NCBI RefSeq assembly: GCF_003428335.1
Contig: NZ_CP031704.1
Location: forward strand, 5,282,071 to 5,346,070
DNA length: 64,000 bases
Reading direction: 5' to 3'
From: Solimonas sp. K1W22B-7
Lineage (GTDB): Bacteria > Pseudomonadota > Gammaproteobacteria > Nevskiales > Nevskiaceae
Under the pieces are notes generated by a model. It did no database searches. It had not been told where the DNA came from and saw only the letters and a list, made by a program, of their open reading frames with translations. Below are positions 3,319 to 47,412 of this stretch, piece after piece. Positions within the stretch are counted from its first letter, which is position 1. Each line of letters opens with the position of its first letter. A program made the position numbers and the translations under genes.

Positions 3319-5709
3319 TTACAGCGTCTTCATGTACTCGATCAGCGCCCGGCGCTCCTGGTCGGTCAGCACGCGGGTGAATTCGTGCCCGCCCTTGTCC
3401 TGGCTGTAGTAGAAGCTGTTGTAGACCTTGCGGTCTTCCACCTGCCGGTCGCTGAGGATCGGGGCGTTGATCAGGTTCCAGGCCAGGCCGCCGTTGGCCC
3501 AGACCAGGGCCAGGGCGTCCTGGATGGTGGCGCCGTCCGGGTCGTCGCTGCAGTCGTAGAACGGCATGGAGCCGATGCCGCAGCTCAGGGTTTCGTATTT
3601 CCAGCCGACGTCGGCCTTGTCGTAGCCGGTGGCCAGCGCGGAGTCGAAGCCCATCACGACCTTGCCTTCCATCCCGGCGGGCGCGGTCTTGGAGTTGCGG
3701 CGCCAGATCGCGGGGCGTGCGGTGGGCTGCAGCACCTGCCAGAGGTTGGGCACCGCGCCGTTGTGGAAATACGGCGCGGTGGCCCAGACGCCGTACAGCG
3801 GCGGCGCGAGGTAGCCCAGCTTGCGGTCGCCGCGCAGTGCGGTGTCGTTCCAGTCGGCACAGAGCGACACGCCGTTCTCGTTCTTCTCGCCGTCGTTGTA
3901 GGCGAACCAGTTGCTGCGCGCGGCCAGCGCCACCAGCTGGCTGTTGCCGTCGAGGCGGCGGCGGTCGGTGGCGATGGTCTCGATCGGCACGATGTTGGCG
4001 GCGATGCCTTCCAGCAGCGGCGTGTCGAGATAGGCCTTGTCATGCACGTAGCGCGGCGAGTAGGCACCGTGGCAGCTGGCGCAGGAGCCGTTGCCGCCCT
4101 CGGGCTCCGGCACCGGGTTGTGCAGGGTCTCCGCCCAGAGGTTCTTGCTGTGGAAGATCACCGCGCCCTGCTCGGCCATCTTCCGGTCGATGGTCCCGAG
4201 CTTGCTCTCCGGCCAGGGCGGCGACTTCAGCGACATGATCCAGGCGTCGCTGTCCTGCTGGTGGTCGATGATCCACTGCTTGTCTTCCGCCATGTTGAAG
4301 TGGAAGGGCGTGTTGGGGAAATGGAAGGACAGCTCGATGCGCTTGGCGTCCATCACCTGGCCGCCGTCGAAGAACTTGCCCGAGCGGCTGCCGACGTTCC
4401 ACCACACCGGCGGATCTTCCGTACCGGTCGAAGGCTGCGTCTGGATCGACAGGTATCCCGGCAGCCCCGGCACGTCGGTGATCGTCAGCGTGCCGAACAG
4501 CTGGAAGTTGGTGATGTTGCCGGTGCCGCGCACCTTGTTCTGCGAGATCAGCGCCAGTGCGCTCTGCTGCGGTGCCAGCCGTGCCAGGTCGCTGAACATC
4601 ACGGTGATGTCGGACAGGGAGTTGGTGCCGTACATGGCACCCAGGCCAGGCCCGTCGCTCTTGTCGCCGACGCCGCCGCCATGGCAGATGTTGCAGGTGA
4701 CGTTGAGCTTGCCGGTCCAGCTGCCATCCTCGTTGCGCAGCTGCGTCATGCCCATCGGCAGCTGGCCACTGCCGCCGTTCGTTGCATTGGGGTCTTCACC
4801 GGGCAGCGGATAAGGATTGGACGTGGGCGACAGCGGCATGCCCCAGCGTTCCGCCACCAGTTCGTCGTAGTTGCCCGGCCGCGCGTCGAGCTTCCAGATG
4901 CGGTCCCACATCTGGTTGTACTTGTCCGCACCAAAGGCATAGAAGGCCGTGGGCGCGTTGCCGCCGAAGAAGTGGCCCGCGCCCACTTCACCGTCGCTGG
5001 CCACCAGCGGGTAGCCGCGGTCCGAGCGCGCGCGCAGTTCGCCGCAGGTACCTGGATGATTGTCGGCCTGGCAGGTCTGCCACCAGGCGTTCATGTGCAC
5101 CGCCTTGCCTTCGCTCACCCCCGGCGTCACCAGCTCGCGCGGGTCCTGCGGCACCGGCGTGGAATCCGGTTTGCCGGCGCAGTAGTCGAACCAGTAGTGG
5201 CCGCCGCGGCGGCTGCCGAGCAGCGGCAGCTCGCTGACGACACCGCCGCCGATGGTGCCGAGCAGCGCGGCGCAGCCGGAGGCGTCCTCGAAGCATTTGA
5301 GCAGCACGTCCATCGCCCTGTAGGCATCGCTGCCCACCGGCCAGGGCGCGCCGCCGCTATGCGGCGTCTCCTGGCCCGACGACATCAGCAGGATGCGCGA
5401 GGTGGGGTTGTTGCGGCCCAGCCGCTCCCAGCTGGCGCGCAGGTTGGCCAGGTCCTGCGACCTGTCGGTGGGGTGCAGCATGAAATCCTGCCCATCTTCC
5501 ACGTCGGCCACGCCGCCGTCGATGTGGCAGGTGCGGCAGAAGTCCAGGCGCGGCTGCACCTGGCCGGTGAAGAGCTGTTCCATGCTGCGCGGCGAGGCCC
5601 CGCCACCACCGCCACCGGTCACCGCATCGCTGCGGCCGCTGTAGTCGCCGCAGGCGGAGAGCAGCAGGGCCAGCAGCAGGATTCCGCCTTGGCGGGATTG
5701 GGTTTTCAT
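3319..5709 (-). CDS. RoxA-like triheme c-type cytochrome lipoprotein (copy 1)
   Basis: 796 residues. A lipoprotein signal (LLLSAC, Cys20) precedes three CXXCH haem motifs: Cys58-His62, Cys339-His343 and Cys543-His547. The last two are 204 residues apart and bracket a conserved VWWN segment (Trp436-437). This resembles the diheme rubber oxygenase RoxA/RoxB and MauG-peroxidase superfamily, as does the C-terminal PLYGVWATAPYFHNGAVP motif (about 639-654). The N-terminal FCRTCH domain (about 45-140) is an addition relative to canonical RoxA. Predicted to sit in the periplasm or outer membrane and oxidise a hydrophobic substrate or H2O2; the substrate is unknown. AGGAC precedes the ATG. It lies downstream of, and in the same direction as, copy 2. 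Confidence 0.83.
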   Translation of the reverse strand: MKTQSRQGGILLLALLLSACGDYSGRSDAVTGGGGGGASPRSMEQLFTGQVQPRLDFCRTCHIDGGVADVEDGQDFMLHPTDRSQDLANLRASWERLGRNNPTSRILLMSSGQETPHSGGAPWPVGSDAYRAMDVLLKCFEDASGCAALLGTIGGGVVSELPLLGSRRGGHYWFDYCAGKPDSTPVPQDPRELVTPGVSEGKAVHMNAWWQTCQADNHPGTCGELRARSDRGYPLVASDGEVGAGHFFGGNAPTAFYAFGADKYNQMWDRIWKLDARPGNYDELVAERWGMPLSPTSNPYPLPGEDPNATNGGSGQLPMGMTQLRNEDGSWTGKLNVTCNICHGGGVGDKSDGPGLGAMYGTNSLSDITVMFSDLARLAPQQSALALISQNKVRGTGNITNFQLFGTLTITDVPGLPGYLSIQTQPSTGTEDPPVWWNVGSRSGKFFDGGQVMDAKRIELSFHFPNTPFHFNMAEDKQWIIDHQQDSDAWIMSLKSPPWPESKLGTIDRKMAEQGAVIFHSKNLWAETLHNPVPEPEGGNGSCASCHGAYSPRYVHDKAYLDTPLLEGIAANIVPIETIATDRRRLDGNSQLVALAARSNWFAYNDGEKNENGVSLCADWNDTALRGDRKLGYLAPPLYGVWATAPYFHNGAVPNLWQVLQPTARPAIWRRNSKTAPAGMEGKVVMGFDSALATGYDKADVGWKYETLSCGIGSMPFYDCSDDPDGATIQDALALVWANGGLAWNLINAPILSDRQVEDRKVYNSFYYSQDKGGHEFTRVLTDQERRALIEYMKTL

Positions 5710-5914: not shown

Positions 5915-7972
5915 TCATAAGGTCTTCAGGTACTCGATGATCGCGCGCCGCTCCGGGTCGCTCAGCGCCCGCGTGAAGTCATGCCCGGTGTTGCGCTTGG
6001 CGAACTGGTGGCTGTTGAAGATCATCCGCTCGCGCACCGCCGCACGCCCCAGCGGCTGCGTCACCTGGTAGCCCAGGCTGTTGAGCGTGCCCGGCAGCGT
6101 GTTGATGAACTCCACCAGCGCCGTGAAAGCCGGCGGCGCGTTCTCCAGCTCGCAGGAGACATAGGGCAGGCCGCCCGCACCGCAGAGCAGCGCCTCGTGC
6201 TTCCAGCCCAGCCGCTGCTGATCGTAAGCGGCAAGCTCCGTGTCCAGGCCCTCCTCGCCCTCCGCCTGCGTCAGCTGGCGCCGCCACACCGCCGGCCGCT
6301 GCTCCGGATCGAGCAGGCTCCACACGTCCGGCACCGAGGCGTTGTGCAGATACGGCGCCGTCGCCCAGACACCGTGCAGCGGCGGCGTCAGATAGCCCAC
6401 CGCGTCCTCCGGCATCGCGCCCTGCCAGGTGCAGGCACCTTTCACGCGCGTACCGGTGAACACCGTCAGGTCATCGAGCCGCTCCACCACCGCGTTCTTC
6501 TCGTCCGGCGACACATAGCCCTCCGAGCCCTCCGGGTAGGAGAACCAGGAGCTGCTCATCACCTCCAGCAGCGGCTTGGTGAATCCGTCCAGCCGCTGCC
6601 GGTCGCTGCGGATCTGCTCGATCGGCGCGATATAGCCCGCCATGCCCCGCAGGCGCGGGTCCTCGAGATAGGCCGGGTCATGCGCATAGCGCTCCGCGTA
6701 CACGCCATGGCAACCCGCGCAGGAGCCGTTCGTGGGCGGACGCGGAATATCCTCGTTCACGCCCGAGCCCCACAGGTCCTTGGCATGGAACAGCACCGCG
6801 CCGGCCTTCGCCAGGTTCTCGTCCACCGGCCCCGGATACAGCGGCGATCGCAGCGAATCGATATAGGCCTGCGCATCCAGGCTCTGCGTCTCGATGCGGT
6901 CGCGCAGCACGCGGTTGAATTCCTTGTTCATGCCCAGCGGCGATTCCACCGGCCGCAGCGCCTCCAGGATCGCGCTGTTGAGACGCGAGGCATCGTAGGA
7001 GAAGCCGCCATCCCAGAACTTGCGCGGCCGATGGCTCGCGTTCCACCACGCCGGCATCTTGGTATCGCCGCCGCCGGAGGTGTTGCCCGGCAGCTGCAGC
7101 AGCACCGCGCTGTCCGGCCGCAGGCCCAGCGAGTCGAGATCAAGCAGGCCGATCAGCAGGCCCGACAAGCCCTCCGCATTCGTCACGCCGCGCGTGTCGT
7201 TCAAGCCGATCGGCAGCAGGGGCAGCAGCACATCCGACAGCAGCAGCTGGAGGTCACTGGTGTTCGCGCCGAGCCCCGAGACAAACTCCGAGCCCGCTGC
7301 GCGCAGCTCACCGCTATGGCAAGCATCGCAGGTGATGCCGATACTGCCGTTGTAGTGGCCCTCCGCATCCTTGATCTGCGTCAGCCCCGCCGGCAGCTCG
7401 CCGGAGCCGCCATCGTTGGTCACCGGGTCCTCGCCCGGCAGCGGGTAGGGATTGCGGAAACTCGCCTTCGGCAGGCCGTAGCGCCGCCGCGCCTGCTCAT
7501 CGAAATCCGCCGGCCGCGCGCTCAAACCCCAGCGCTGCCACATCGCGTTGTACGAGCCCGCGCCGATCAGCCCGCGCCCATGGAAGCTCATCGCCAGCCC
7601 GCTGCGCATCAGCGTTTCGCCGGCCGCCACGCGGCTGCGATACTCGCCGCAGCTCTGCGGCTTGCGCCGCGGGTTGTCGCCCGGCCCGGTGCAGTCCTGC
7701 CAGTAGGCATTGAAAGCGACCGCGCGCCCCGCGTTCACGCCGGGCCGGATCAACTCGCGCGGGTCCTGCGGCAGCATCGCGCTGTCCGGCTGCCCCTCGC
7801 AGAACTCGTCCCTGTAGGAGCGCGCATGGTCGCTGCCCAGCAGCGCCCGCTCCTGCACCGGCGGCTCCACGACACCGCTGCCGGGCGCCGCGGGGCCCGC
7901 GTCATCGCTGCGCGAGCAGGCACCCAGCGCCAGGCACACCGACAGCCCCAAGATCTTCCAGGCTCGCGCCAT
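5915..7972 (-). CDS. RoxA-like diheme c-type cytochrome lipoprotein (copy 2)
   Basis: 685 residues from the ATG at 7972, which has GGAG at good spacing; an in-frame ATG at 7987 is possible. Lipobox LGAC. Only two CXXCH motifs occur, CDACH (about 215-219) and CAGCH (about 418-422), spaced 203 residues. Overall size and haem spacing match canonical RoxA more closely than the other four copies, and the N-terminal FCRTCH domain is absent. Shared landmarks are NPYPLPGEDP, PAWWN between the haems, PLHGVWATAPYLHNASVP and the end GHDFTRALSDPERRAIIEYLKTL (last 23 residues). It diverges from a TetR gene with a palindromic operator in between, so induction by a small ligand is likely. The substrate is unknown. 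Confidence 0.84.
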   Translation of the reverse strand: MARAWKILGLSVCLALGACSRSDDAGPAAPGSGVVEPPVQERALLGSDHARSYRDEFCEGQPDSAMLPQDPRELIRPGVNAGRAVAFNAYWQDCTGPGDNPRRKPQSCGEYRSRVAAGETLMRSGLAMSFHGRGLIGAGSYNAMWQRWGLSARPADFDEQARRRYGLPKASFRNPYPLPGEDPVTNDGGSGELPAGLTQIKDAEGHYNGSIGITCDACHSGELRAAGSEFVSGLGANTSDLQLLLSDVLLPLLPIGLNDTRGVTNAEGLSGLLIGLLDLDSLGLRPDSAVLLQLPGNTSGGGDTKMPAWWNASHRPRKFWDGGFSYDASRLNSAILEALRPVESPLGMNKEFNRVLRDRIETQSLDAQAYIDSLRSPLYPGPVDENLAKAGAVLFHAKDLWGSGVNEDIPRPPTNGSCAGCHGVYAERYAHDPAYLEDPRLRGMAGYIAPIEQIRSDRQRLDGFTKPLLEVMSSSWFSYPEGSEGYVSPDEKNAVVERLDDLTVFTGTRVKGACTWQGAMPEDAVGYLTPPLHGVWATAPYLHNASVPDVWSLLDPEQRPAVWRRQLTQAEGEEGLDTELAAYDQQRLGWKHEALLCGAGGLPYVSCELENAPPAFTALVEFINTLPGTLNSLGYQVTQPLGRAAVRERMIFNSHQFAKRNTGHDFTRALSDPERRAIIEYLKTL

Positions 7973-8039
7973 TTTTCTCGTCTCCATGCACCGGGCGCCG
8001 GCTGCCTCCTCTTGTGCGGGAAGCTGGCCTGGGCAAAAG

Positions 8040-8098: not shown

Positions 8099-8758
8099 AT
8101 GCTGCGCGCCATGAACGACCTCCAGGCCGGCCTCTCCGCCCCCCGCGCACCGCTGCAGCAGCGCGGCCAGGCGCGTTTCGAGCTGGTGCTGGAGGAGGCA
8201 CGCAAGCTGTTGATCGAACAGGGAATGGCAGGCTTTTCGATCCCGGTGCTGGCGGAGCGGCTGGGCTTCACGCGGGCCAGCATCTACAACTTCTTCCCCA
8301 CGCCCTACGCGGTGCTCAACGAGCTGGCGCGGCGCGAGCTGCAGGACATGGAGCAGCGCCTGGTGGCCCTGCCCGCCGCACATCCGCCGATGTCGTGGAC
8401 CGAGCAGGTGCGGCTCACGGTGGACACCGCCGCGCGCTTCCACAACGAGCGCCCGGTGGCACGGCTGCTGATCCTGGGCGGCGCGCAGACCGACGAGAGC
8501 TACCGCGCGCAGGCGATGACCATCGACCACCTCGGCAGCCTGTCGCAGCGCCTGTTCGCCGACGCCGGCATCCTGCTGCCGCGCGAGCCGGTGGACGTGA
8601 TGGTGCTGGCGGTGGACCTGGGCACCACCTGCTTCCGCCATTCCGTGCTGCTGCACGGGCACATCACGGATGCGTATCGCGAGGAAGCCACGCGCGCGAT
8701 GCTGCGGTATCTGACGCCGTATGTGCGGCAGTTGTTGCTGGCACGCAGGCGGGGGTAA
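8099..8758 (+). CDS. TetR family transcriptional regulator (divergent from RoxA-like copy 2)
   Basis: 219 residues. The N-terminal DNA-binding domain (about 22-75) has the TetR helix-turn-helix AERLGFTRASIYNFFPTPYAVL; the remainder is a helical ligand-binding domain without a recognisable subfamily. Start codons at 8099 or 8111 are both possible, with no strong ribosome site. The gene diverges from RoxA-like copy 2 across a short gap holding two palindromes, so it most likely represses that gene and itself until an effector binds. It converges with copy 3 over a palindrome cluster. Confidence 0.88.
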   Translation: MLRAMNDLQAGLSAPRAPLQQRGQARFELVLEEARKLLIEQGMAGFSIPVLAERLGFTRASIYNFFPTPYAVLNELARRELQDMEQRLVALPAAHPPMSWTEQVRLTVDTAARFHNERPVARLLILGGAQTDESYRAQAMTIDHLGSLSQRLFADAGILLPREPVDVMVLAVDLGTTCFRHSVLLHGHITDAYREEATRAMLRYLTPYVRQLLLARRRG

Positions 8759-8906: not shown

Positions 8907-11357
<2,451 letters not shown>

Positions 11358-11588: not shown

Positions 11589-12206
11589 ATGGCGCAGGCA
11601 TTTGATCTGACGCCCAAAAAGCTGCCGCTGCAGGCACGCGCGCGGGCCACCGTGGATGCCATGCTCGATGCCTGTACTCGGCTACTGGTGGCCGAGGGCT
11701 ACGAAGCCGTGTCCACCAACCGCATCGCCGAGGTGGCGGGCGTCAGCATCGGCTCGCTCTACGAGTACTTTCCCAACAAGCAGTCGCTGGTGGCCGCCGC
11801 GCTGTCGCGCACCCTGCGCGAGATCGTCGCCGAGATGGGCGTCAGCCTGCACAAGGCGCTGGCCCTGCCCCGGCAGCCGCATGACGGCATCGACTACTGG
11901 ATGCGCGCCATGGTTGCCTCGCTGGACAAGCGCGCCGACCTGCTGCGCGTGGCGCTGCGCGAGGTGCCCTTCCTGTGGGAGATCCCCGAGGTGCGCGAGC
12001 TGTCGCAGACCCTGCAGCAACTCGGGCAGGAAGGCCGCTACAAGAGCCAGCGCGTGATCCAGTTCGAGGACCCCGAGGCCAGCACCTACCTGCTGACGAA
12101 CATGACCTGGGCCGCGATGCTGCAGACCGTGCTGCACCGGCCGCCGCATTTGTCGCGGGAGCGGCTGACGCGGACGCTGGTGGATATGGTGTTGAAGCTG
12201 TTGTGA
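11589..12206 (+). CDS. TetR family transcriptional regulator (divergent from RoxA-like copy 3)
   Basis: 205 residues. The helix-turn-helix is very typical: STNRIAEVAGVSIGSLYEYFPNKQSLV (about 43-69). The C-terminal helical domain should bind an effector. A clear GGAGGGGAC ribosome site fixes the ATG. It has little resemblance outside the HTH to the TetR protein at 8099, so the two regulators probably sense different ligands. Divergent orientation to RoxA-like copy 3 suggests local control of that gene. Confidence 0.92.
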   Translation: MAQAFDLTPKKLPLQARARATVDAMLDACTRLLVAEGYEAVSTNRIAEVAGVSIGSLYEYFPNKQSLVAAALSRTLREIVAEMGVSLHKALALPRQPHDGIDYWMRAMVASLDKRADLLRVALREVPFLWEIPEVRELSQTLQQLGQEGRYKSQRVIQFEDPEASTYLLTNMTWAAMLQTVLHRPPHLSRERLTRTLVDMVLKLL

Positions 12207-20043: not shown

Positions 20044-20143
20044 TCGGAACTCCCCCGTTCAAAAGGCCCCGCAATAGTACCTCGGGGACCCCTTCGTGGC
20101 GCCAAGACGCCGAAGGTATGTCATAACGCTTGACCATCACCTA

Positions 20144-20171
20144 CAGCAACCTGATCACTGAATCAGGTTGT
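20144..20171. promoter_or_regulatory. 28-base inverted repeat (copy A) upstream of OLD-type gene
   Basis: CAGCAACCTGA, eight variable bases, TCAGGTTGT; arms CAACCTGA/TCAGGTTG. A second element with the same arms, flanks and spacing lies at 24015-24042. It lies 150 bases upstream of the OLD-type gene and between it and the divergent ATPase. Either a shared operator or a recombination/module boundary. Confidence 0.55.
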
Positions 20172-20321
20172 TCCTTCTGGGAAAGTAGCAGTTGCGCCGC
20201 TTGAGCAAAAAAGGGCGAAACTCATTTTTCGTGGACGGCAATGCAGATTCGGGAAGCTCTGCCAGTACAGTGGAGGGTCTGCGTGTCGTACGCGCTAAAA
20301 TGGCTTCACACAACCACTTAG

Positions 20322-28999: not shown

Positions 29000-29140
29000 G
29001 GGGGGAAGCTTACTCTCCCACTGGGTTTCGCTCACCCCCTGGAACTGGTGACGGATTGGTGGTTTGTGACGGTTTTTGGATTTGGATTGGGGGAGGCTGG
29101 AGCCTTCAATCGGCGGCGCGGTGCGTGACCGCCGCTACTG

Positions 29141-29235: not shown

Positions 29236-30399
29236 TCAGAACCGGTACGTCGCGCGCAGCTGCACGCTCCAGTAGTCGATCAGGGCCGGGTTTTCCACAT
29301 CCACGCTCTTGAGGGCGAAGTCCTTGCTGGCCTTGTAGTACTCCAGGCCACCGCCGAAGGCGAGGGCGCCCACGGCTTTGCTGACGTCCACCCGCGCGGA
29401 CAGGGCGCCGTAGGGGGAGAGGCGGTAGTCGCTGGAGCCGAAGCCGTCGCCGCGCGGGGCGTTGTAGTACGGGGCGTAGAAGAAGGCCTGGCTCTGGGAG
29501 TACCAGCGCAGCGAGGGGATGATGCGCAGGTTGTCGGGCAGGGACTGGGCCCAGGCGACTTCCAGGGTGTGGGCGTCGATCTCCCAGTCGTCGTGGTAGT
29601 AGCGGTAGTCGACATGCACGGCGGCGTTCTGCTGCGTCAGGAAGTGACGCAGCTTGGCGCTGGCGGCCCAGGACTGGCGGCCGTCGGGGCGGCTTTCCTG
29701 GGCGGTGTTGGCGGTGCTGGTGAGCCAGATGCGCTTGTAGGGGTCGGTGAGGTAGCCGTCGCCCTTCTGGTAGCTGAGGCTGCCCTGCACCACGGTGTTG
29801 GCGTTGAGCACCAGGGCGGCGCCGCCGTAGAGCGTGAGGGTGCTCTTGTCGTCTTCGTCGATGCGGTCGAAGCCGGTGAGCTGCACGGGCTTGATAGTGT
29901 CGCTGGAGTAACCCAGGCCGCCGGTCCAGGTGACGCCGTTCTCGTCGTCTTCCAGCTCCAGCTCGACGCCGGCGTTGATCGCCTCGTAGTCGTCTTCGGT
30001 GGAGTAGCCCAGGGTGAAGGCGGTCTGGAACGGGGCGACCGGCAGGGAATAGGTGCCCTGCAGGTCCACGCGTTCCTCACGGATGCTGGCGCCGCTCATG
30101 ACCACCTGCGGCGCGCCGTTGGTGCCGGGCTGGATCCACCAGGGCGAGGCGCCGCTCATGGTTTCGTAGGTGAGGTTGAGGCCCACGGCGCTGTCGCCCA
30201 GCGGGGCGACCACGCGGAACATGTGCGACAGGATCTCGTAGCGCTCGGAGGCGTTGCCGGCCGACTTGGAGCCGGAGATGTCGCCTTCCTTGTAGTAGCT
30301 GAAGAGATAGTCGGACTGCACTTCGGCGGCCAGGGCGACGCCGGGCAGGGCAAGGGCGGCCTGGGTGAGCGCGGCCAGCGCTTTGGAGGTGTTCTTCAT
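29236..30399 (-). CDS. DUF3570 family outer-membrane beta-barrel protein
   Basis: 387 residues. A signal peptide (to LPGVALAA) is followed by alternating amphipathic strands and a terminal Phe (LRATYRF), as in outer-membrane barrels. VQSDYLFSYYKEGDIS near the mature N-terminus, WWIQPGTNGAPQVVMSGASI and YRYYHDDWEIDAHTLEVAW are typical of DUF3570. Function is not established; the family is regularly found with DUF4266 lipoproteins, TlpA-like thioredoxins and ApbE, as here. It begins five bases after the DUF4266 stop, so they are co-transcribed. Confidence 0.88.
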   Translation of the reverse strand: MKNTSKALAALTQAALALPGVALAAEVQSDYLFSYYKEGDISGSKSAGNASERYEILSHMFRVVAPLGDSAVGLNLTYETMSGASPWWIQPGTNGAPQVVMSGASIREERVDLQGTYSLPVAPFQTAFTLGYSTEDDYEAINAGVELELEDDENGVTWTGGLGYSSDTIKPVQLTGFDRIDEDDKSTLTLYGGAALVLNANTVVQGSLSYQKGDGYLTDPYKRIWLTSTANTAQESRPDGRQSWAASAKLRHFLTQQNAAVHVDYRYYHDDWEIDAHTLEVAWAQSLPDNLRIIPSLRWYSQSQAFFYAPYYNAPRGDGFGSSDYRLSPYGALSARVDVSKAVGALAFGGGLEYYKASKDFALKSVDVENPALIDYWSVQLRATYRF

Positions 30400-30403
30400 G
30401 TTC

Positions 30404-30631
30404 TTAGTTGCACCCGCAGCCGCCGCCACCGAGGGAGGCGCCGCCGGAAGCGGCTTCCTTGCTGAACTGCACGTGCCGCCGGAATTCGGCGGTCAGCGGA
30501 TCGGGCTCCCAGGCCATTTCGGACTTGGCGAGCGTGCCGCGCTGCCAGGGCTGCACGTCCTGCTTGGTGGTGGCACAGCCCGACAGCAGCAATGCGGCCA
30601 GTACGGCGCCGCTGGTCAACTTCAGCCTCAT
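30404..30631 (-). CDS. DUF4266 small lipoprotein
   Basis: 75 residues. Lipoprotein signal LLLSGCATT followed by VQPWQRGTLAKSEMAWEPDP, a Gly-rich stretch and the C-terminal CGCN that typifies DUF4266. The ATG overlaps the TlpA stop by four bases (ATGA) and DUF3570 follows within five bases. Membrane-anchored in the periplasm. The paired C-terminal cysteines could be a redox or metal site, which would fit the thioredoxin encoded just upstream; that link is inference. Confidence 0.85.
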   Translation of the reverse strand: MRLKLTSGAVLAALLLSGCATTKQDVQPWQRGTLAKSEMAWEPDPLTAEFRRHVQFSKEAASGGASLGGGGCGCN

Positions 30632-31122
30632 GATTTCTCCCCTAGGGTCTTGTCGATCAGCGCTTCCAGCGCCGGCAGATCTGTTGTCCTGAATCCCTCG
30701 TGCACGTGGCGCACGATACCGTCCCGTCCGATCAGGTAGCCAGTGGGCATGGTCGGCAGCTCGAAGCGCTCCGGCCAGCTGCCGCTGGGGTCGTAGACCA
30801 CCGGGAACGTGACGGGCAGGCGCTTGAGCGCGCGGTCGGCGTCGGCGCGGTCCTGGTCGATGTTGACGCCGATCACCACGAAGCCGCGCGAGGCCCATTG
30901 CCTGTAGAGCCGCTCGTACTGGGGGATGGCCTGGCGGCAGGGCGCGCACCAGGAGGCCCAGAAGTCGACGTAGACGACCTTGCCCTTGTACTGCGCCAGG
31001 CTCACGGGCTGCTGGCCGGCGTTGGGCGCCACCAGCGGCGGCGCGGCCTCGCCCGCCTTCACGGCGTGGCTCAGCGGCGAGGCCAGCATCAAGACCAGGG
31101 CCAGGCCCAGGGCAACACGCAT
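30628..31122 (-). CDS. TlpA-like periplasmic thioredoxin
   Basis: 164 residues from the ATG at 31122 with a GGAGGAG ribosome site. Signal peptide 1-20, then a TlpA/ResA-type thioredoxin fold with VVYVDFWASWCAPC (Cys59, Cys62) and the cis-Pro segment LPTMPTGYLIG. It probably reduces disulfides of a periplasmic partner; the coupled DUF4266 lipoprotein with its C-x-C tail is the obvious candidate. First gene of the TlpA-DUF4266-DUF3570 operon. Confidence 0.9.
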   Translation of the reverse strand: MRVALGLALVLMLASPLSHAVKAGEAAPPLVAPNAGQQPVSLAQYKGKVVYVDFWASWCAPCRQAIPQYERLYRQWASRGFVVIGVNIDQDRADADRALKRLPVTFPVVYDPSGSWPERFELPTMPTGYLIGRDGIVRHVHEGFRTTDLPALEALIDKTLGEKS

Positions 31123-31285
31123 CTGCAGCTCCTCCAGATTGGTTGGCAGGGAGACCCAAGGGGCAACCCGGCGCGCCATCCCTCTGCGGGGACGGTCCAC
31201 GACATGATGGCATCCTCGCCGGCCGGCGGCGACGGCGCGATATCCGTATGGGTCAGGCGATTGATAATTGCGGTCAGAGCCCGTG

Positions 31286-36351: not shown

Positions 36352-36352
36352 T

Positions 36353-38194: not shown

Positions 38195-39517
38195 TCAGTT
38201 GCAGCGCCGGGCGCCCAGCTTGATCAGCGGCTCGACGATGCCGCCGACCAGGCCGCCGTCGAAGCGCGCCGTGAGATAGAGCAGGGCCGGCACCGCGTAC
38301 GCCACGGTGCCGGTGACGTGCTCGCCGGCCAGGCCGCGCACGAAGCTGATCGGCGTGCCGGCATCGCACCAGGTGTCCACCAGCGCGGCGGTGCCGGCCA
38401 CGGGGATGATCTCGTCGAAGGTCTCGTGGTAGATGAACATGTCGGCGGTGGGCGCCTTGCCGGGCTGCGGCAGCGTGACCTTGTCGCGCACCGCGATGGC
38501 GCCCGGCGTGCTGAAGGGATCGGCCACGGTGGTGTAGTCGGACAGGCTCTTGAACAGCGCCAGCGCGGAGTTGTCGCTGACGCAGCCGTCCTTCATCTGC
38601 TCGAACAGGGCCTTGCCGTCTTCGTTGAGGATGGCGGGCGGCAGCAGCTCCGGGTAGGCGCGGTTGGCGCCGACGATGCCGCCGAGGATCAGGCCCATGA
38701 ACGGCCCGCCCTCGACACGCTGCACGACACCGAACAGGTCGGCCGGCACACCGCCGGCGGCGACGCCCACCAGGTTCAGTTCCGGCGCGTAGTCGGGCTG
38801 CATCGACGCTGCCCAGGCCGTGGCCAGCGCGCCGCCGGAGTAGCCCATCATGCCCACCGGCGTTTCGGCGTTGAGGCCCAGGTCCTGGAAGCTCAGCGCC
38901 GCGCGGATGCTGTCGAGCACGGCCTGGCCGGAGAGCTTGCCCACGCCGTAGGCTGAGTAGGGGCCCTCGTAGTCGGGCAGCACGATGGTCCAGCCCAGGG
39001 CCAGCTGGCCGAGGATGTAGATCAGCGTCTCGGCCTGGTTGTTGTAGTTGGCGATGCCGCCGCGCAGGGTGCGCGAGGGCGTGCACTGCGCGCCGAGGCT
39101 GTCGTAGGCGAACTGGTAGGACAGCAGCGGCGGATGCGCCGACAGCGAGGGCAGCAGCGGCTTGACCACGGTGGTGACGGCGGCCAGCGGTCGGCCGTTG
39201 GCGTCGCGCGTGACGTACTGGATCTGCCAGGCCTGGCCCGGCAGCGGGATCGACAGCCCAGGGCGGAACGGCACCTTGCGGGCCTTGATGACGGTGCCGG
39301 GCGCGGCCTTGGCCGGGAAGGGTTCGGGCTGGTCATAGAAGCTGTCCGGGTCGGGCGTGGGGGCGAAGGGCACGCGCTTGATCAGCGCGGCGCCGCTAAG
39401 GCCGTCGCTGCTGCTGCTGTCACCGCCGGATTCGCTGCCACCGCTGCAGGCTGTGAGCAGGAGGGCCGCCGTGAACAGGCAGGCCAGGGCGGCGCGGGGC
39501 AAGTACGGGTGATTCAT
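38195..39517 (-). CDS. Secretory lipase-family lipoprotein (alpha/beta hydrolase)
   Basis: 440 residues from the ATG at 39517, fixed by a GGAGGAAGA ribosome site. Lipobox LLTAC (Cys24). The nucleophile elbow MMGYSGGALA places Ser227; PDYEGPYSAYG before it and HETFDEIIPV later are characteristic of the secretory lipase (LIP, Candida lipase-like) family, with Asp in the latter segment. Predicted to hydrolyse esters at the cell surface or in the periplasm. Lies between the SMP-30-like protein and the quinone reductase/RoxA-like copy 4. Confidence 0.85.
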   Translation of the reverse strand: MNHPYLPRAALACLFTAALLLTACSGGSESGGDSSSSDGLSGAALIKRVPFAPTPDPDSFYDQPEPFPAKAAPGTVIKARKVPFRPGLSIPLPGQAWQIQYVTRDANGRPLAAVTTVVKPLLPSLSAHPPLLSYQFAYDSLGAQCTPSRTLRGGIANYNNQAETLIYILGQLALGWTIVLPDYEGPYSAYGVGKLSGQAVLDSIRAALSFQDLGLNAETPVGMMGYSGGALATAWAASMQPDYAPELNLVGVAAGGVPADLFGVVQRVEGGPFMGLILGGIVGANRAYPELLPPAILNEDGKALFEQMKDGCVSDNSALALFKSLSDYTTVADPFSTPGAIAVRDKVTLPQPGKAPTADMFIYHETFDEIIPVAGTAALVDTWCDAGTPISFVRGLAGEHVTGTVAYAVPALLYLTARFDGGLVGGIVEPLIKLGARRCN

Positions 39518-39830
39518 TCTTCCTCCAAAAACGGGACGGCGCATGTGCTGCGCTCTGGGCCGGTAGTGTCGGGGGAAGGCGGGGAAGGCGCGCGGGTCGC
39601 GGGGGCCAGTTGTCTTAGCAGGAGAGGCCAGCGGGATGGGCGGTCGGGTGTGGGGGGTGAGCGGTGGCAAGCCGTGCAAGAGGCAGGCCGTTTGTCCCCA
39701 CTCCCGCTTGCGGGAGTGGGATACAGGGAGAGGGTTTCTGTAAATCTAGCGAATGGCTCCTGCCGCTTGTTCTACAGAAACCCTCTCCCCATTACCCCTC
39801 TCCCGCAAGTGGGAGAGGGATGATGTGTTC
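39518..39830. other. Intergenic region upstream of the lipase gene
   Basis: No gene seen. The left 170 bases should carry the lipase promoter; the right part (39697-39820) is a composite TTTCTGTAAAT/CCCTCTCCC palindrome, the third of its kind in the window, adjoining the quinone reductase stop. Confidence 0.7.
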
Positions 39831-43420: not shown

Positions 43421-43450
43421 TGCGCCAATTTGCTTGTCGATGCGGGCCAA
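43421..43450. promoter_or_regulatory. Candidate AraC operator, copy A
   Basis: TGCGCCAATTTGCTTGTCGA followed by TGCGGGCCAA, between the divergent starts of RoxA-like copy 4 (43233) and the AraC gene (43500). Related sequences occur at 47507, 47624 and 48788, always just upstream of the AraC paralogues. Confidence 0.6.
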
Positions 43451-43499
43451 GGCCCTCTGGCGTATTGAGCTGTCCTTACGGGCCGCCTATGGTCGGGGC

Positions 43500-44510
43500 A
43501 TGAAGACGGAAGACCTGTCCAAGCCCACCATCGGCATCGCCTACGTGCAGCTGTCGCTGCAACTGGGGACGGAGCGCGGCATCTCCCACGAAGTCCTGCT
43601 GAAGGACCTGGGCATCGGCACGCTGCAGCTGGCGCAGCCGGACGGCCGCGTGCCCTTCCTGCAGTACGGCCGGCTTTGCGCGCGCCTGCTGCGGCTGACC
43701 GGAGAGACCGGCCTGGGGCTGGAATTCGGCCTGCGCACCACGCTCACCACCCACGGCCTGATCAGCTACGGCGCGCTATGCCAGGCGACGCTGCGCGAAG
43801 CCCTGCAGTTCACGCTGCGCTTCGCGCCGCGCCTGATGTCGCCCGGCTTCAGCCTGCGCAGCTTCGAAGAGGACGGCAGCGCGGTGATCGATCTCTCCGA
43901 AACCGTGCAGTACGGCCCGCTGCACCAGTACGCGGTGGACATGCACCTGTCGGCCACGGCGATGATGCTGCGCCAGCAGCTGCCCGGCCTGGCCACGGAA
44001 CTATGGTTCAAGTGCGAGGAACCGCCGCACTTCGCCCGCTACCGCGACCGCCTGCCGTTGGCGCGTTTCGGCATGGGCGCCAACCAGATCCGCTTTGCCG
44101 CCGGCAACCTGGACCAGCCGCTGGCCACCGCCAACGCGGTGACGGCACAGCTGGTGCGCGGCCACTGCGAGCAGGAGTCCTCGCGCATCGCGGTGCCGGA
44201 GGACTTCGTCGGCCGCGTGCGCGCGCTGCTGGTCAACGGCCAGCAAAGCTACCCGGACCTGGAGACGCTGGCCAGCGGGCTGCACGTGTCGGCGCGCACG
44301 CTCAAGCGCCGCCTGCACGACCAGGGCTTCAGCTACAAGCGCCTGCTCGACGAGGCGCGCCAGCGCGACGCCACACGCCTGCTGAAGGAGACGGCGCTGT
44401 CGGTGGAGCAGATCGCGACGCGGCTGGGCTACTCCGACGCGGCGAACTTCTCGCGGGCCTTCCGGCGCGTGACGGGGGCTCCGCCGAGCACGGTGCGCGC
44501 GGGGGTCTGA
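43500..44510 (+). CDS. AraC family transcriptional regulator 1
   Basis: 336 residues. The N-terminal two thirds is an arabinose-binding-like (PF12625-type) domain, with GLEFGLRTTLTTHGLISYGALCQATLREAL. The C-terminal AraC DNA-binding domain holds two helix-turn-helix units, LASGLHVSARTLKRRLHDQG and IATRLGYSDAANFSRAFRRVTG. Starting at 43500 aligns the N-terminus without gaps to the two paralogues at 47703 and 48867 (15 residues to the same Tyr). Divergent from RoxA-like copy 4 and likely its activator. Confidence 0.9.
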   Translation: MKTEDLSKPTIGIAYVQLSLQLGTERGISHEVLLKDLGIGTLQLAQPDGRVPFLQYGRLCARLLRLTGETGLGLEFGLRTTLTTHGLISYGALCQATLREALQFTLRFAPRLMSPGFSLRSFEEDGSAVIDLSETVQYGPLHQYAVDMHLSATAMMLRQQLPGLATELWFKCEEPPHFARYRDRLPLARFGMGANQIRFAAGNLDQPLATANAVTAQLVRGHCEQESSRIAVPEDFVGRVRALLVNGQQSYPDLETLASGLHVSARTLKRRLHDQGFSYKRLLDEARQRDATRLLKETALSVEQIATRLGYSDAANFSRAFRRVTGAPPSTVRAGV

Positions 44511-44598: not shown

Positions 44599-47412
44599 CT
44601 ACAGCGTCTTCAAGTACTCCACCAGCGCCCTGCGCTCGTCGTCCGTCAGTTCCTCGGTGAACTCATGGCCCTGGTTGCCCTTGCCGTAGAGCAGGGTGTT
44701 CTGGATCTTGCGCGTCTCCACCTGCCACTGGCCCACGGCGGGAATCTCGAAGTTGATGTCCCAGGCGACGGAGCCCTGGATCAGGTCGAGGATGCCCTTG
44801 AGCGGGTTGTTCTTCCAGAGGATCGTGTACTCCGGCTGGCACTGGTAGAACGGGATGCCGCGGATGCCGGTGTCGCCGCACTTCACCTCGTCGTACTTCC
44901 AGCCGAGGTTCTGGAAGTCCAGCGCGCGGCCCAGGTTCGGGTCGAAGCCGCGGTCCACGCCGCTGGTGGTGCCTTCCGGCGTTTCCCGGCGCTTCCACAT
45001 CTGCTTGCGGTCCGACGGCTTGAGCACTTCCCAGACATTGGGCACCGAGCCGTTGTGGAAGTACGGCGCACTGGCCCAGACGCTGTGCAGCGGCGGCGCG
45101 GTGTAGCCGATGATCTCGGTCTGGAACGAGCAGGCGCCGCGGATGCGCCCGACGAAGTCGTCCAGCGGCAGGCCCGGGATCAGTTGCAGCAGCGACACCA
45201 CCGGCTGCAGCGCCTCGCGCAGGCCCGGGATGTTGAGACTGCCCACCAGGGTCTGCAGCTGCAGCGCCAGGCCGCCGGCCTTGATGTTGCCGGGGATCAT
45301 GATCAGGTCGTCCATGGCCTCCATGCCCGGCAGCTTCTCCTCCGGCATCCTGTAGCCTTCCACCGCGTCGGGATACGAGTTCCAGATCGTGGAGACGGCG
45401 CCGCGCACGGTGCTGGTCCAGTTCTCGGCCTGCTTGCGGTCGGTGCCGATGATGTCCAGCGGCACGGTGTAGCTGGCCATGCCGACCAGCTTCGGATGCG
45501 GCAGGTAGTTCGGATCATTGGCATAGCGCGGCGAGTAGGCACCGTGGCAGCCGGCGCAGGAGCCGTTGCCGCCTTCCGGCGCCGGACGGTTCTCGTTCAT
45601 GCCCTCGGCCCAGAGGTCCTTGTTGTGGAACAGGATCGCGCCCTGCTCGGCCAGCGGCCGGTCGATGCAGCCGGCCGGGTCGCCGGACTGGCGCGCACCG
45701 CTGCTGCCGCTGCAGAAGCCATAGGGGTACTTGGGCCCTTCCACCGAGTCATGCCACAGGCGCACGTCGTCGAAGTCGCCTTCGCGCGCCTGGTTCCAGT
45801 GGCCGCCCTGCAGGTTGGCGCCGGCACCGAAGTACATGTCGCCGCGGCTGCCGTCGCTGGAATGCGCTCCGAACCACAGGTAGCGGGCCTTGTTGTGCGT
45901 CCACCACCAGGCCGGGGAGTCCTGGTCGCCGGTGCTGCCGCCGAAGGCGGTGAGCCAGAACACGTCGCGCGCCAGGTAGATCGGCGTGAAGGCGTGGTCC
46001 AGCGTGTCGACGTCGCGCAGCATGTAGAGGATGACGATGTCGTCGTCCGCCGCGTGCGTGCCGCGCGTGGTGTTGACGTTGACCGGCAGGCCGATGAAGG
46101 GCGGGAACTGCGACTTGCCGAGCAGGCCGGTACGCAGCAGTTCGTTGATCTGCAGCCCGAAGTCCTGGAGGCTGTTGGGCGAGCCCATGAAGCTGCCCGA
46201 GGGGTTCTTGCCGTAGGCGGAGATCAGCGCCGGGTCGGCCTGCACTTCGCCGGCATAGCCCACCGCCTCGCCGCTGCCGATGCGGCCGGCATGGCAGATG
46301 AAGCAGTTGATGCCGAGGTTGCCGCTGTACTTGCCGTCCTCGGTCCTGCCCTGCGACCAGCCCAGCGGCAGCTTGCCCGTGCCGCCGAAGCTGGCGCTCA
46401 GCTGCGCCTTCTCCTCGTCGTCGATCGGGTAGGGGTTGGGGATCGGCGAGGGTGCGAAGCCGTAGCGCTCCACCAGCTGCGCGTCGAAGTCGCTGGGGCG
46501 TTCGGCCAGGCCCCATTGCTTCCAGACGTTGCCGTAGATGCTGGCCGGAATGGCGCCGGCGTCGCCGGTGGTGGGATGGCGGGCGATGAAGTCGAAGCCG
46601 TGCGCCGCGCGCTGGCGGAACTCGCCGCAGGTGGTCGGGTTGCGCTTGGCGGTGTGGCGCGGCGCCTCGCCCTTGGCGACCAGGATGGCGTTGGCGCGTG
46701 CCTGGTTCTCGAACAGGGCCTCGGTATGGCAGTTCTCCCAGGGATCGTTGACCCAGACCGCCGAGTTCCCGTTCTTGAAGATCGGGCCGTCGACCTGCAG
46801 CAGGTGGCGCGGATCGTCGTCCCAGCTCACCGGCGTGGAGTCCGGCTTGCCCTCGCAGAACTTCGTGGCCCAGAAGCGATGCCCGGTTTCGTCGGCGCTG
46901 CCCAGCAGCGGCAGCAACGGACCGCCGCCGCCCACGCCGCCGCCCAGCAGCGCGGCGCAGGCGCCGGGATTGTCCCAGCAGCCCAGCAGGATCTTCATGT
47001 TGGTGTAGCCGGGGCTGCCCACCGGCCAGGGCGCGCCGCCGCTGTGCGTGTGCTGGCCCGAGGCGTTCTGCAGGATCAGGTTGTTTTCCACGCCCCTGCC
47101 CAGCGCGGTCCAGCTGGCCTTGAGCAGCGGGTAGTCCTTCGACTTGTCGGAGGACAGCATGAAGCGCTTGCCCTCGGCCGTGTCGGCGACGCCGCCCGGC
47201 ACATGGCAAGTGCGGCAGAAGTCCAGCGTCGGGGCGACGTTGGAGGAGAAATGGCTCTGCTCGTCCTTGGCGGCGCCACCGCCCCCGGGATTGCCGCCGC
47301 CGTTGCCGCCGCCCGCCACCGGATCGCTGCTGCCGCTGTAGCTGCCGCAGGCCGACAGCAGCAGCGACGCGGCCATGGCCAGCAGCGCTTTCATGTTCCT
47401 GTATTGCCGCAT
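44599..47412 (-). CDS. RoxA-like triheme c-type cytochrome lipoprotein (copy 5, longest)
   Basis: 937 residues. The ATG at 47412 is chosen because MRQYRN aligns with MFQYKK of copy 4 and a GAGAGAG site precedes it; 47394 is possible. Lipobox LLSAC (Cys22). CXXCH: Cys66-His70, Cys370-His374, Cys619-His623; core spacing 249. PAWWWTHNKARYLW at about 500-513. It has extra segments relative to copy 4, notably between the last haem and the GVWASAPYFHNGSVP-like motif (about 700-780), containing a Leu/Pro-rich insertion. Diverges from AraC 2. Same predicted location and reaction class as the other copies. Confidence 0.83.
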   Translation of the reverse strand: MRQYRNMKALLAMAASLLLSACGSYSGSSDPVAGGGNGGGNPGGGGAAKDEQSHFSSNVAPTLDFCRTCHVPGGVADTAEGKRFMLSSDKSKDYPLLKASWTALGRGVENNLILQNASGQHTHSGGAPWPVGSPGYTNMKILLGCWDNPGACAALLGGGVGGGGPLLPLLGSADETGHRFWATKFCEGKPDSTPVSWDDDPRHLLQVDGPIFKNGNSAVWVNDPWENCHTEALFENQARANAILVAKGEAPRHTAKRNPTTCGEFRQRAAHGFDFIARHPTTGDAGAIPASIYGNVWKQWGLAERPSDFDAQLVERYGFAPSPIPNPYPIDDEEKAQLSASFGGTGKLPLGWSQGRTEDGKYSGNLGINCFICHAGRIGSGEAVGYAGEVQADPALISAYGKNPSGSFMGSPNSLQDFGLQINELLRTGLLGKSQFPPFIGLPVNVNTTRGTHAADDDIVILYMLRDVDTLDHAFTPIYLARDVFWLTAFGGSTGDQDSPAWWWTHNKARYLWFGAHSSDGSRGDMYFGAGANLQGGHWNQAREGDFDDVRLWHDSVEGPKYPYGFCSGSSGARQSGDPAGCIDRPLAEQGAILFHNKDLWAEGMNENRPAPEGGNGSCAGCHGAYSPRYANDPNYLPHPKLVGMASYTVPLDIIGTDRKQAENWTSTVRGAVSTIWNSYPDAVEGYRMPEEKLPGMEAMDDLIMIPGNIKAGGLALQLQTLVGSLNIPGLREALQPVVSLLQLIPGLPLDDFVGRIRGACSFQTEIIGYTAPPLHSVWASAPYFHNGSVPNVWEVLKPSDRKQMWKRRETPEGTTSGVDRGFDPNLGRALDFQNLGWKYDEVKCGDTGIRGIPFYQCQPEYTILWKNNPLKGILDLIQGSVAWDINFEIPAVGQWQVETRKIQNTLLYGKGNQGHEFTEELTDDERRALVEYLKTL

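What the first reader, a model, noticed from the sequence alone, without database searches (positions are those of the whole stretch)
3319..47412. Five RoxA-like multiheme lipoproteins, four of them each diverging from its own regulator
Copies at 3319, 5915, 8907, 40609 and 44599 share NPYPLPGEDP-type, WW(N/W), GSCA(S/G)CHG and GVWA(T/S)APY(F/L)HN motifs and an EYxKTL end. Copies 2 and 3 diverge from TetR genes; copies 4 and 5 diverge from AraC genes; copy 1 follows copy 2. Established knowledge: RoxA/RoxB are diheme c-type dioxygenases that cleave rubber. Inference: a set of separately inducible oxygenases or peroxidases for related hydrophobic substrates. Finding five regulated copies in one 44 kb stretch is unusual.
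Basis: partly seen in the sequence, partly recalled or inferred. Interest (0 to 1): 0.9.

Follow-up and report, generated by a model that had tools for sequence, protein, structure and literature searches.

The report
Sixteen RoxC-like haem enzymes, apparently flavin-wired
This Solimonas-like bacterium carries sixteen relatives of rubber-cleaving haem enzymes, mostly with their own gene switches, and comparative genomics suggests that most of them draw electrons from a flavin-bearing outer-membrane barrel protein, which might explain why a close relative showed no activity on rubber when tested alone.

Summary
In detail: five RoxA/B/C-superfamily lipoproteins, four divergent from TetR or AraC genes. 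Two corrections. They are not RoxA: none of the 16 genomic copies reaches the RoxA cut-off; copy 3 is RoxC; copy 1 passes the RoxB cut-off marginally; copies 2, 4 and 5 pass none. Four of the five (14 of 16 in the genome) carry a third, N-terminal haem domain.

Published work shows that ApbE flavinylates DUF3570 and leaves its function uncertain. Of 58 family genomes, 20 carry both Rox and this DUF3570 class; in 15 they lie within 15 kb (0.56 expected). Seven named loci show Rox/cassette stop-start overlaps. Two cassettes with a dihaem Rox encode the third-haem domain separately; one genome has three in tandem. AlphaFold models the window's DUF3570 as a 16-strand barrel.

Best reading: redoxin → DUF4266 → flavinylated barrel → third haem → catalytic haem of separately regulated oxygenases for lipids or terpenoids. 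Identity is firm, electron supply inferred from genomics, chemistry and substrates unknown. Trihaem RoxC lipoproteins are known; the flavin link was not found in the papers searched.

The parts
3319..5709 (-). Rox copy 1, trihaem lipoprotein (CRTCH, CNICH, CASCH); RoxB/RoxC-like
   Evidence: NCBIfam RoxB 918 bits (cut-off 900), RoxC 831
5915..7987 (-). Rox copy 2, dihaem lipoprotein (CDACH, CAGCH), no N-terminal haem domain
   Evidence: best NCBIfam RoxC 869, below cut-off
8907..11357 (-). Rox copy 3, trihaem RoxC, close relative of the tested Fontimonas RoxC
   Evidence: NCBIfam RoxC 1326 bits; 65% identical to L036
40609..43248 (-). Rox copy 4, trihaem lipoprotein, divergent clade (Leu at 301, Trp at 302)
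   Evidence: RoxC 727 bits, below cut-off
44599..47412 (-). Rox copy 5, trihaem lipoprotein
   Evidence: RoxC 862 bits, below cut-off
8099..8758 (+). TetR regulator divergent from copies 2 and 1
   Evidence: Pfam TetR_N
11589..12206 (+). TetR regulator divergent from copy 3
   Evidence: Pfam TetR_N
43434..44510 (+). AraC regulator (Arabinose_bd + HTH_18) divergent from copy 4
47520..48755 (+). AraC regulator (Arabinose_bd + HTH_18) divergent from copy 5
30628..31200 (-). Redoxin / thioredoxin-like protein, first gene of the flavin cassette
   Evidence: Pfam Redoxin 91 bits
30404..30628 (-). DUF4266 small lipoprotein ending in a CXC motif (GGCGCN)
   Evidence: Pfam DUF4266 81 bits; sequence
29236..30429 (-). 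DUF3570 protein with two SGAS motifs; predicted 16-strand barrel; only DUF3570 match in the genome
   Evidence: Pfam; single match; alignment; model pLDDT 83.4; Foldseek
28085..29035 (-). ApbE FMN transferase (one of three matches in the genome)
   Evidence: Pfam 267 bits
39831..40535 (-). Flavodoxin_2 / NAD(P)H:quinone reductase-like, 73 bp downstream of copy 4; a protein with the same N-terminus (by eye) lies 0.2 kb from the flavin cassette in L095 and about 3.3 kb from it in L094 (other Solimonas)
38195..39679 (-). Secretory lipase (LIP), possible pathway partner

Best explanation
The five genes belong to a genome-wide set of 16 haem lipoproteins of the RoxA/RoxB/RoxC superfamily, mostly RoxC-like or lying between RoxB and RoxC. 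Nearly every unit has its own TetR/AraC/ArsR-type regulator, and by their pocket residues the kinds are suited to different hydrophobic substrates. Fourteen carry an extra N-terminal c-haem domain. I propose that this domain is the electron inlet: reducing equivalents pass from DsbD to the redoxin, to DUF4266 (CXC), to the FMNs that ApbE puts on the DUF3570 barrel of the outer membrane, to the third haem, and on to the catalytic haem, which then activates O2 (or peroxide) to oxidise or cleave a C=C bond of a lipid, terpenoid or similar compound. Shown here: identity, aligned haem ligands, regulators, the cassette and its linkage to the trihaem class. Shown in print for another species: DUF3570 flavinylation by ApbE (Chlorobium luteolum, PMC8238504). 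Predicted: the barrel. Inferred: direction of electron flow, contact of DUF3570 with the third haem, chemistry and substrates.
For: Linkage: 22 of 58 family genomes have strong Rox hits, 23 this DUF3570 class, 20 both (Fisher 1.9e-10); in 15 of 20 the closest pair is within 15 kb, 0.56 expected by random placement. Module: the third-haem module is in 20 of 58 family genomes, all 20 among the 22 Rox genomes, and 19 of the 20 have this DUF3570 class (Fisher 1.7e-10). In the class sample it is in 3 of 369 genomes, exactly the three (the own genome, G082, G095) where Rox and DUF3570 are neighbours, out of 23 Rox genomes (p 5.6e-4); the query came from G082 itself. Operons: in 22 of 22 loci with Rox and a cassette gene the closest pair is on one strand; seven show stop-start overlaps, four with ATG starts (L029, L031, L052, L056), two with GTG (L048, L051), one with TTG, or by 1 bp with ATG (L047). 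Hydrocarboniphaga has DsbD between ApbE and Rox. Split genes: L099 and L031 pair a dihaem Rox with a separate third-haem lipoprotein at the same cassette (174.6 bits each). One family genome has a 441-aa lipoprotein of three tandem modules. A His that could be the second axial ligand is kept in 78 of 78 by a relaxed pattern (53 of 78 by the strict one). Flavin sites: 23 of 23 DUF3570 at Rox loci have [ST]GA[ST], 22 of them two; 21 of 23 have a DUF4266-like CXC frame. Barrel: pLDDT 83.4, pTM 0.81; all 50 Foldseek hits shown (of 483 at E <= 0.001) are outer-membrane barrels or assemblies holding one. Pocket: 11 signatures among 16 copies, clade-specific across genera.
Against: No experiment. In the own genome the cassette is about 10 kb from the nearest Rox gene and in no Rox operon; in G048 it is 24.6 kb away, in G022, G025, G049 and G050 on other contigs. 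By tblastn the 23 named DUF3570 loci hold a redoxin in 19 but ApbE in only 12; the Fontimonas locus is among the 11 without ApbE. DUF3570 is common without Rox (93 of 369 class genomes against 23 with Rox), and in five of six fetched loci from genomes without Rox the cassette sits with PSD/PSCyt cytochromes, so it is no Rox-only device. Only 2 of 22 other Rox genomes of the class sample show the linkage. The other RoxC reported inactive on rubber, from Oceanococcus, is dihaem (PMC10837239), so lack of a donor to a third haem cannot be the reason there. Acidic residues align to distal positions 252 or 254 in 6 of 16 copies (2, 4, 5, L012, L011:9987, L013, loop alignment uncertain), unlike the all-hydrophobic RoxA pocket. 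Two of 16 copies lack the third haem. Foldseek TM-scores are modest (0.29-0.55 by query). Which rim bears the flavins is by convention only. No trihaem Rox model could be made.
Confidence: 0.57

Rival explanations
1. They are self-sufficient rubber/isoprenoid dioxygenases like RoxA and RoxB, and the flavin cassette near them is an indirect neighbour.
For: Superfamily membership and aligned ligands; six of 16 pass the NCBIfam RoxB cut-off marginally; one trihaem copy (L011:5426) has F301, W302, A316 and F317 of RoxA; only 12 of 23 DUF3570 loci hold ApbE nearby.
Against: Linkage far above chance and tied to the trihaem class; split-module cassettes; RoxC of Fontimonas and Oceanococcus showed no rubber activity (PMC10837239); only 1 of 16 copies keeps F301, W302 and F317 together.
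Confidence: 0.14
2. They are lipid hydroperoxidases or H2O2 peroxidases with an extra haem, like E. coli YhjA, that take electrons from the flavin chain to detoxify peroxides in the envelope.
For: YhjA is proposed to take electrons from quinol and has an N-terminal haem (PMC10301912, title and start of abstract in the listing only); RoxCs were isolated as Fe3+ (PMC10837239); acidic residues align at 252 or 254 in 6 of 16 copies and His or Tyr at 302 in four (L009, L011:7815, L010, L015:7149).
Against: 16 paralogues with 11 pocket signatures and mostly their own regulators fit substrate specialisation better than detoxification; the five window copies are below the NCBIfam CytoC_perox cut-off; the loop alignment behind 252/254 is uncertain.
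Confidence: 0.22
3. Electrons run the other way: the enzymes oxidise a substrate and pass electrons through the third haem into the flavin barrel.
For: PMC8238504 notes that electron flow in flavinylation systems could in principle be reversed.
Against: A redoxin in 19 of 23 DUF3570 loci and DsbD in one operon point to a reducing supply.
Confidence: 0.07

Closest known systems
RoxC (NF051462; Fontimonas thermophila, Oceanococcus atlanticus; PMC10837239)
   Same: Lipoprotein; third N-terminal haem CRTCH in the Fontimonas protein and many others; CFQCH first catalytic motif; Ala at F317 and Phe at W302 (copy 3).
   Different: 16 copies in one genome with 11 pocket signatures; the link to DUF3570/ApbE and the split and tandem modules are not described in the two parts of that review I read.
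RoxB (NF050034; LatA)
   Same: Catalytic domain at 907-942 bits in six of 16 copies.
   Different: Characterised RoxB is dihaem, not listed as a lipoprotein, with Val at the W302 position (PMC6311187, PMC10837239); five of those six are trihaem and none of the six has Val there.
RoxA (PDB 4b2n)
   Same: Related over the whole catalytic part, same aligned haem ligands.
   Different: RoxA is a secreted dihaem enzyme with stably bound O2; no copy reaches the RoxA cut-off.
FadCcp: oleate 10S-dioxygenase and diol synthase PA2077/PA2078 (PMC4496055)
   Same: RoxA relatives acting on unsaturated fatty acids, the best functional precedent.
   Different: Dihaem; no sequence comparison was made here.
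DsbD/thioredoxin/DUF4266/DUF3570/ApbE flavinylation system (PMC8238504)
   Same: The same genes, [ST]GA[ST] sites and CXC protein.
   Different: The passages seen give no client enzyme (they suggest iron assimilation for 25 clusters with VIT1); here a client appears to be a Rox-family haem enzyme.
Porin-cytochrome conduits (MtrCAB type, recalled)
   Same: Barrel plus haem proteins to move electrons across the outer membrane.
   Different: Here the barrel itself would carry covalent flavins (recalled: MtrB has none).

Membership tests
RoxA | NCBIfam RoxA model over cut-off (1000) | tested here: not met
   0 of 16 copies, best 547 bits
RoxA | F301, W302 and F317 at the catalytic haem | tested here: not met
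   all three in 1 of 16 (L011:5426, trihaem); in none of the five window copies
RoxA | proximal H195, H394/H641 of the second haem, MauG-motif H517 | tested here: met
   His aligned in 16 of 16
RoxA/RoxB | cleaves polyisoprene with O2 | not testable with these tools
   needs an assay
RoxB | NCBIfam RoxB model over cut-off (900) | tested here: inconclusive
   6 of 16 at 907-942 bits (window: copy 1 only); L077 1129, L041 1121, L079 783
RoxB | dihaem, Val at the W302 position | tested here: not met
   0 of 16 own copies have Val there; the clade of L077 and L041 does
RoxC | NCBIfam RoxC model over cut-off (900) | tested here: inconclusive
   met by 3 of 16 (window: copy 3, 1326 bits); the other four window copies score 727-869
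RoxC | lipoprotein signal | tested here: met
   lipobox-like Cys after a hydrophobic stretch in all five window copies, read by eye; no signal-peptide program was run
RoxC | third N-terminal haem motif (a substantial number of RoxCs) | tested here: met
   4 of 5 window copies, 14 of 16 in the genome
RoxC | strongly acidic isoelectric point | not tested
   not computed
ApbE/DUF3570 flavinylation system | ApbE, DUF3570 with two [ST]GA[ST] motifs, DUF4266 with CXC, thioredoxin-like protein together | tested here: met
   window 28085-31200
ApbE/DUF3570 flavinylation system | covalent FMN on DUF3570 | not testable with these tools
   shown for Chlorobium luteolum in PMC8238504 (passages)
FadCcp (PA2077/PA2078) | sequence kinship and fatty-acid dioxygenase activity | not tested
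   only the paper's passages were seen
Di-haem cytochrome c peroxidase (NF040606) | model over cut-off (150) | tested here: not met
   99-111 bits for the five window copies

The most novel reading that the evidence does not exclude
DUF3570 and DUF4266 form a flavin-based conduit across the outer membrane: a 16-strand barrel whose loop carries two covalent FMNs (SGAS at residues 82-85 and 103-106 of the model) passes electrons to surface-exposed haem lipoproteins through a detachable haem module. That module is fused to oxygenases (RoxC-like), stands alone, or is strung in tandem. One such conduit then serves a whole fleet of separately regulated cell-surface oxygenases that attack water-insoluble substrates outside the cell.
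Probability: 0.35. Interest if true: 0.88.

Novelty: new variant of a known kind. Interest (0 to 1): 0.68.

Why it matters
Two open questions become testable together: what RoxC is for (function unclear in the 2024 review, no activity on rubber) and what DUF3570-based flavin electron transfer is for (called uncertain in 2021). If the link is right, an electron donor was missing from the assay of the trihaem RoxC, and a large, unexplored set of envelope oxygenases for lipids, terpenoids or polymers could be assayed. It would also give a flavin counterpart of porin-cytochrome conduits. In addition, the NCBIfam cut-off would label six of these 16 proteins 'rubber dioxygenase RoxB' although five of the six carry a third haem and none has the RoxB residue at position 302.

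Tried and rejected
PDB searches with one AraC and one TetR regulator of the window gave no clue to ligands. PDB sequence search with the DUF3570 profile: one chance-level hit, E 2.1. A lipoprotein motif CGxYxG after the lipid Cys, which seemed shared by trihaem Rox and PSD cytochromes, was found in 21 of 76 trihaem Rox with a recognised lipobox and dropped as a general claim. Intergenic palindromes differ from unit to unit, but no chance control was run. Lcp-type proteins: four PF09995 matches in the genome, not pursued. Structure of a trihaem Rox (alignment A3): never accepted, machine busy. Clustering merged unlike proteins and was redone; script 37 stopped with an error and served only to show that merging. 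The mechanical gene caller missed some genes: clusters showed ApbE at 10 loci, tblastn at 14 of 73, of which 12 have DUF3570.

Rows dropped or defined by me: 'strong Rox' means 57 bits or more (22 of the 37 family genomes with any match). The 'DUF3570 class' means copies of 180-225 bits ending at model position 396-406 (23 of the 35 family genomes with any DUF3570). Rox proteins under 560 aa were left out. L029, counted as dihaem there, is a trihaem protein cut by its contig end. Named loci reach at most about 8 kb to each side of the hit, and the genome scan returned the best 80 of 178 confirmed places, 73 distinct loci.
Full report
WHAT IS THERE. The five frames are real and homologous. Against Pfam RoxA-like_Cyt-c they score 69.5-78.2 bits (cut-off 26.7). 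The three searched singly against the PDB match RoxA 4b2n at 7.6e-98 to 5.6e-128; a profile of all 16 genomic copies matches it at 1.5e-185, the next hits being at E 0.03 and 0.09. The RoxA haem ligands H195, H394 and H641 and the MauG-motif H517 align with His in 16 of 16 copies. Copies 1, 3, 4 and 5 carry a third CXXCH (CRTCH) in an N-terminal extension; copy 2 does not. All five show a lipobox by eye.

GENOME CONTEXT. The window lies in a single-contig 5.37 Mb genome, unnamed here; the closest named relatives of copy 3 are Solimonas fluminis and Solimonas sp. SE-A11 (87% identity). It has 16 copies over the Pfam cut-off: 14 trihaem and 2 dihaem. By my grouping they form 11 transcription units, of which 10 (15 of 16 genes) have a divergent regulator: TetR for copies 2-1, copy 3, L011 and L015; AraC for copies 4 and 5, L010, L012 and L014; an ArsR-type HTH for L009; none seen for L013. 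In L010 a GDSL lipase and another frame, and in L012 a second AraC-type gene, lie between the regulator and the Rox gene. Counts elsewhere: among 58 family genomes the own 17 matches are followed by 11, 11 and 10; in 369 class genomes the own 16 are followed by 4.

FAMILY. NCBIfam has models for RoxA, RoxB and RoxC. RoxA (cut-off 1000) is reached by none of 16 (best 547). RoxC (900) is reached by copy 3 (1326), L010 (1227) and L015:9645 (1298). RoxB (900) is reached by copy 1 (918), L009 (908), L011:7815 (942), L011:9987 (921), L013 (908) and L015:13323 (925), whereas L077 (Archangium) scores 1129 and L041 (a Solimonas) 1121. Seven reach none. The review PMC10837239 (two of five parts of the text read) describes RoxC as a third subgroup, mostly lipoproteins, many with a third haem, function unclear. 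It reports, as unpublished, that partially purified RoxC of Fontimonas thermophila (trihaem) and Oceanococcus atlanticus (dihaem) showed no rubber-cleaving activity, and suggests oxidation of unsaturated fatty acids. Copy 3 is 65% identical to the Fontimonas protein.

POCKETS. At RoxA positions 301/302/316/317 the 16 copies show 11 different combinations; position 302 is W, F, H, Y, Q or A, position 317 F, A, I or a gap. At 252 or 254, in a loop that aligns poorly, six copies have Asp or Glu. On a quick tree of 94 relatives, the own copies and RoxA, the signatures are clade-specific and shared between genera, so these are old, separately conserved kinds rather than recent duplicates. DUF3570 neighbours occur in at least seven of the signature clades. 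True RoxB and other dihaem forms nest among trihaem ones, but RoxA is the only outgroup and the root is uncertain.

THE FLAVIN CASSETTE. Between the copies, at 28085-31200, lie ApbE, DUF3570 with two SGAS motifs, DUF4266 ending in a CXC motif, and a redoxin. It is the genome's only DUF3570 match. PMC8238504 (passages seen) showed that DUF3570 is flavinylated by ApbE at such motifs and that these genes travel with thioredoxin-like proteins, DUF4266 and DsbD; it calls the function uncertain and suggests iron assimilation for 25 clusters with VIT1. Its main text has no occurrence of RoxA, rubber or cytochrome c peroxidase.

LINKAGE. Across 58 family genomes, strong Rox hits occur in 22 and the DUF3570 class in 23, both in 20 (Fisher 1.9e-10). 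In 15 of the 20 the closest pair is within 15 kb, with 0.56 expected for random placement, and in 12 within 6 kb. In the class sample of 369 genomes, 22 others have Rox, and in 2 of them (G082, G095) Rox and DUF3570 are neighbours. DUF3570 itself is commoner (93 genomes), so only part of that family is involved. Of 73 named loci fetched around Rox genes, 23 hold DUF3570; of these 19 also hold a redoxin and 12 ApbE. 27 of 64 trihaem but 3 of 30 dihaem Rox proteins have DUF3570 on the locus (Fisher 0.0018); of the three, one is a truncated trihaem protein, one has the split module and one sits beside a trihaem copy. The closest Rox/cassette pair is on one strand in 22 of 22 loci. Seven show stop-start overlaps: ATG in L029, L031, L052 and L056, GTG in L048 and L051, TTG (or a 1-bp overlap with ATG) in L047. 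Gene order varies, and in Hydrocarboniphaga effusa DsbD stands between ApbE and Rox. All 23 DUF3570 carry [ST]GA[ST], 22 of them twice; 21 of 23 have a DUF4266-like CXC frame nearby.

THE HAEM MODULE IS SEPARABLE. A profile of the N-terminal domain (78 sequences) finds it alone in two cassettes whose Rox lacks it: L099:16156-16887 (243 aa) and L031:3948-4748 (266 aa), 174.6 bits each. In another family genome a 441-aa lipoprotein consists of three such modules (154, 117 and 113 bits). A His in the place the review gives for the second axial ligand is kept in 78 of 78 by a relaxed pattern, 53 of 78 by the strict one. With the L099 module as query, the module is present in 3 of 369 class genomes, exactly the three with neighbouring Rox and DUF3570, and in 20 of 58 family genomes, all of them Rox genomes, 19 with this DUF3570 class. 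Of six fetched loci from genomes without Rox, five (L091, L092, L093, L097, L098) have the cassette beside PSD/PSCyt dihaem lipoproteins, with DUF1552 or DUF1501 where scanned; at L096 it is alone (L092 judged by likeness to L091). The cassette thus seems to serve c-type cytochrome lipoproteins in general, with Rox the client here.

THE BARREL. AlphaFold2 on 24 sequences gives the window's DUF3570 as all-beta with 16 long strands by my count, pLDDT 83.4, pTM 0.81. All 50 Foldseek hits shown, of 483 at E <= 0.001, are outer-membrane barrels or assemblies holding one (BcsC, OmpG, OccK, FadL and so on; best E 3e-9, TM by query 0.29-0.55). A hydrophobic-moment test agrees (seven DUF3570 at 1.22-1.54, a TonB barrel 1.16, six non-barrel proteins 0.80-1.03; but DUF1302, also thought to be a barrel, only 1.02). 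The SGAS motifs (residues 82-85 and 103-106) flank the loop between strands 3 and 4, on the side of the longer loops, which by convention faces outward; this is inferred.

MECHANISM. I propose DsbD/redoxin, then DUF4266, then the flavinylated barrel, then the third haem, then the catalytic haem, then oxidation of a hydrophobic unsaturated substrate. This could explain why the trihaem Fontimonas RoxC, isolated as Fe3+ without a donor, did nothing; it cannot explain the dihaem Oceanococcus protein, which may simply not act on rubber. Substrates are unknown. Neighbours across the loci are lipid and hydrocarbon genes: a secretory lipase (window), a GDSL lipase (L010), a linalool dehydratase/isomerase (L013), P450s, DUF1302/DUF1329 pairs (L011, and L015 by similarity), FMO-like monooxygenases, acyl-CoA dehydrogenases and ligases. 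The precedent is the RoxA-related oleate dioxygenase PA2077 (PMC4496055, passages seen).

NOVELTY. RoxC, the third haem and its lipoprotein nature are published. The link to DUF3570/ApbE and the split and tandem modules were not found in print: the word DUF3570 is held by one paper of the library; a joint search for rubber oxygenase/RoxA with ApbE/flavinylation terms from 2016 on listed 40 of 65 papers, and the only listed one holding both kinds of term was a Nocardia genome comparison, not read; PMC11334425 and PMC12052999 have no occurrence of DUF3570 or rubber in their main text. PMC11334425 does name the outer membrane among the places of flavinylated domains without saying which (section 5 read), so others may know of a flavinylated outer-membrane protein. 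Subscription papers, supplements and the bioRxiv server were not searched.

Noticed in passing
window 52121-54073 (+): Open frame with a Pfam Thiol_cytolysin match (74 bits, cut-off 25): a cholesterol-dependent-cytolysin-like gene. Described only.
   Followed up: no
window about 18000-25000: GC falls from about 0.65 to 0.50-0.53, with an AAA ATPase frame (AAA_21, AbiEii-type) at 18673-20043: looks like an inserted island between the Rox groups.
   Followed up: no
window 12344-14299 (-): PQQ-dependent alcohol dehydrogenase-like protein (712 bits) near copy 3; possible partner for alcohol products.
   Followed up: no
L091, L092, L093, L097, L098: The DUF3570 cassette also sits with PSD/PSCyt (DUF1585-DUF1595) dihaem lipoproteins and DUF1552 or DUF1501 proteins; the two full-length ones scanned from the family (L091, L093) have a CBM_2 domain: a second, unexplored client class.
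   Followed up: partly
L061:3642-9068 (Spongiibacter pelagi): An 1808-aa Rox protein with the third-haem module, four CXXCH and thrombospondin type 3 repeats, inside a flavin-cassette locus.
   Followed up: no
L109:8118-9443: Lipoprotein made of three tandem third-haem modules.
   Followed up: partly
L011 and L015 in the own genome: Two three-gene Rox clusters are followed by DUF1302-DUF1329 pairs, known from hydrophobic-compound degraders (recalled).
   Followed up: partly
NCBIfam NF050034 (RoxB): The RoxB cut-off of 900 bits is passed by six proteins of this genome at 907-942, five of them trihaem and none with the RoxB residue at 302: possible over-annotation.
   Followed up: yes
L016:6882-9305 and 9319-11046: Two further frames with two CXXCH each, side by side in the genome; the weak PF21419 hit lies in the first. 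No MauG motif of the Rox kind; not part of the Rox set.
   Followed up: no
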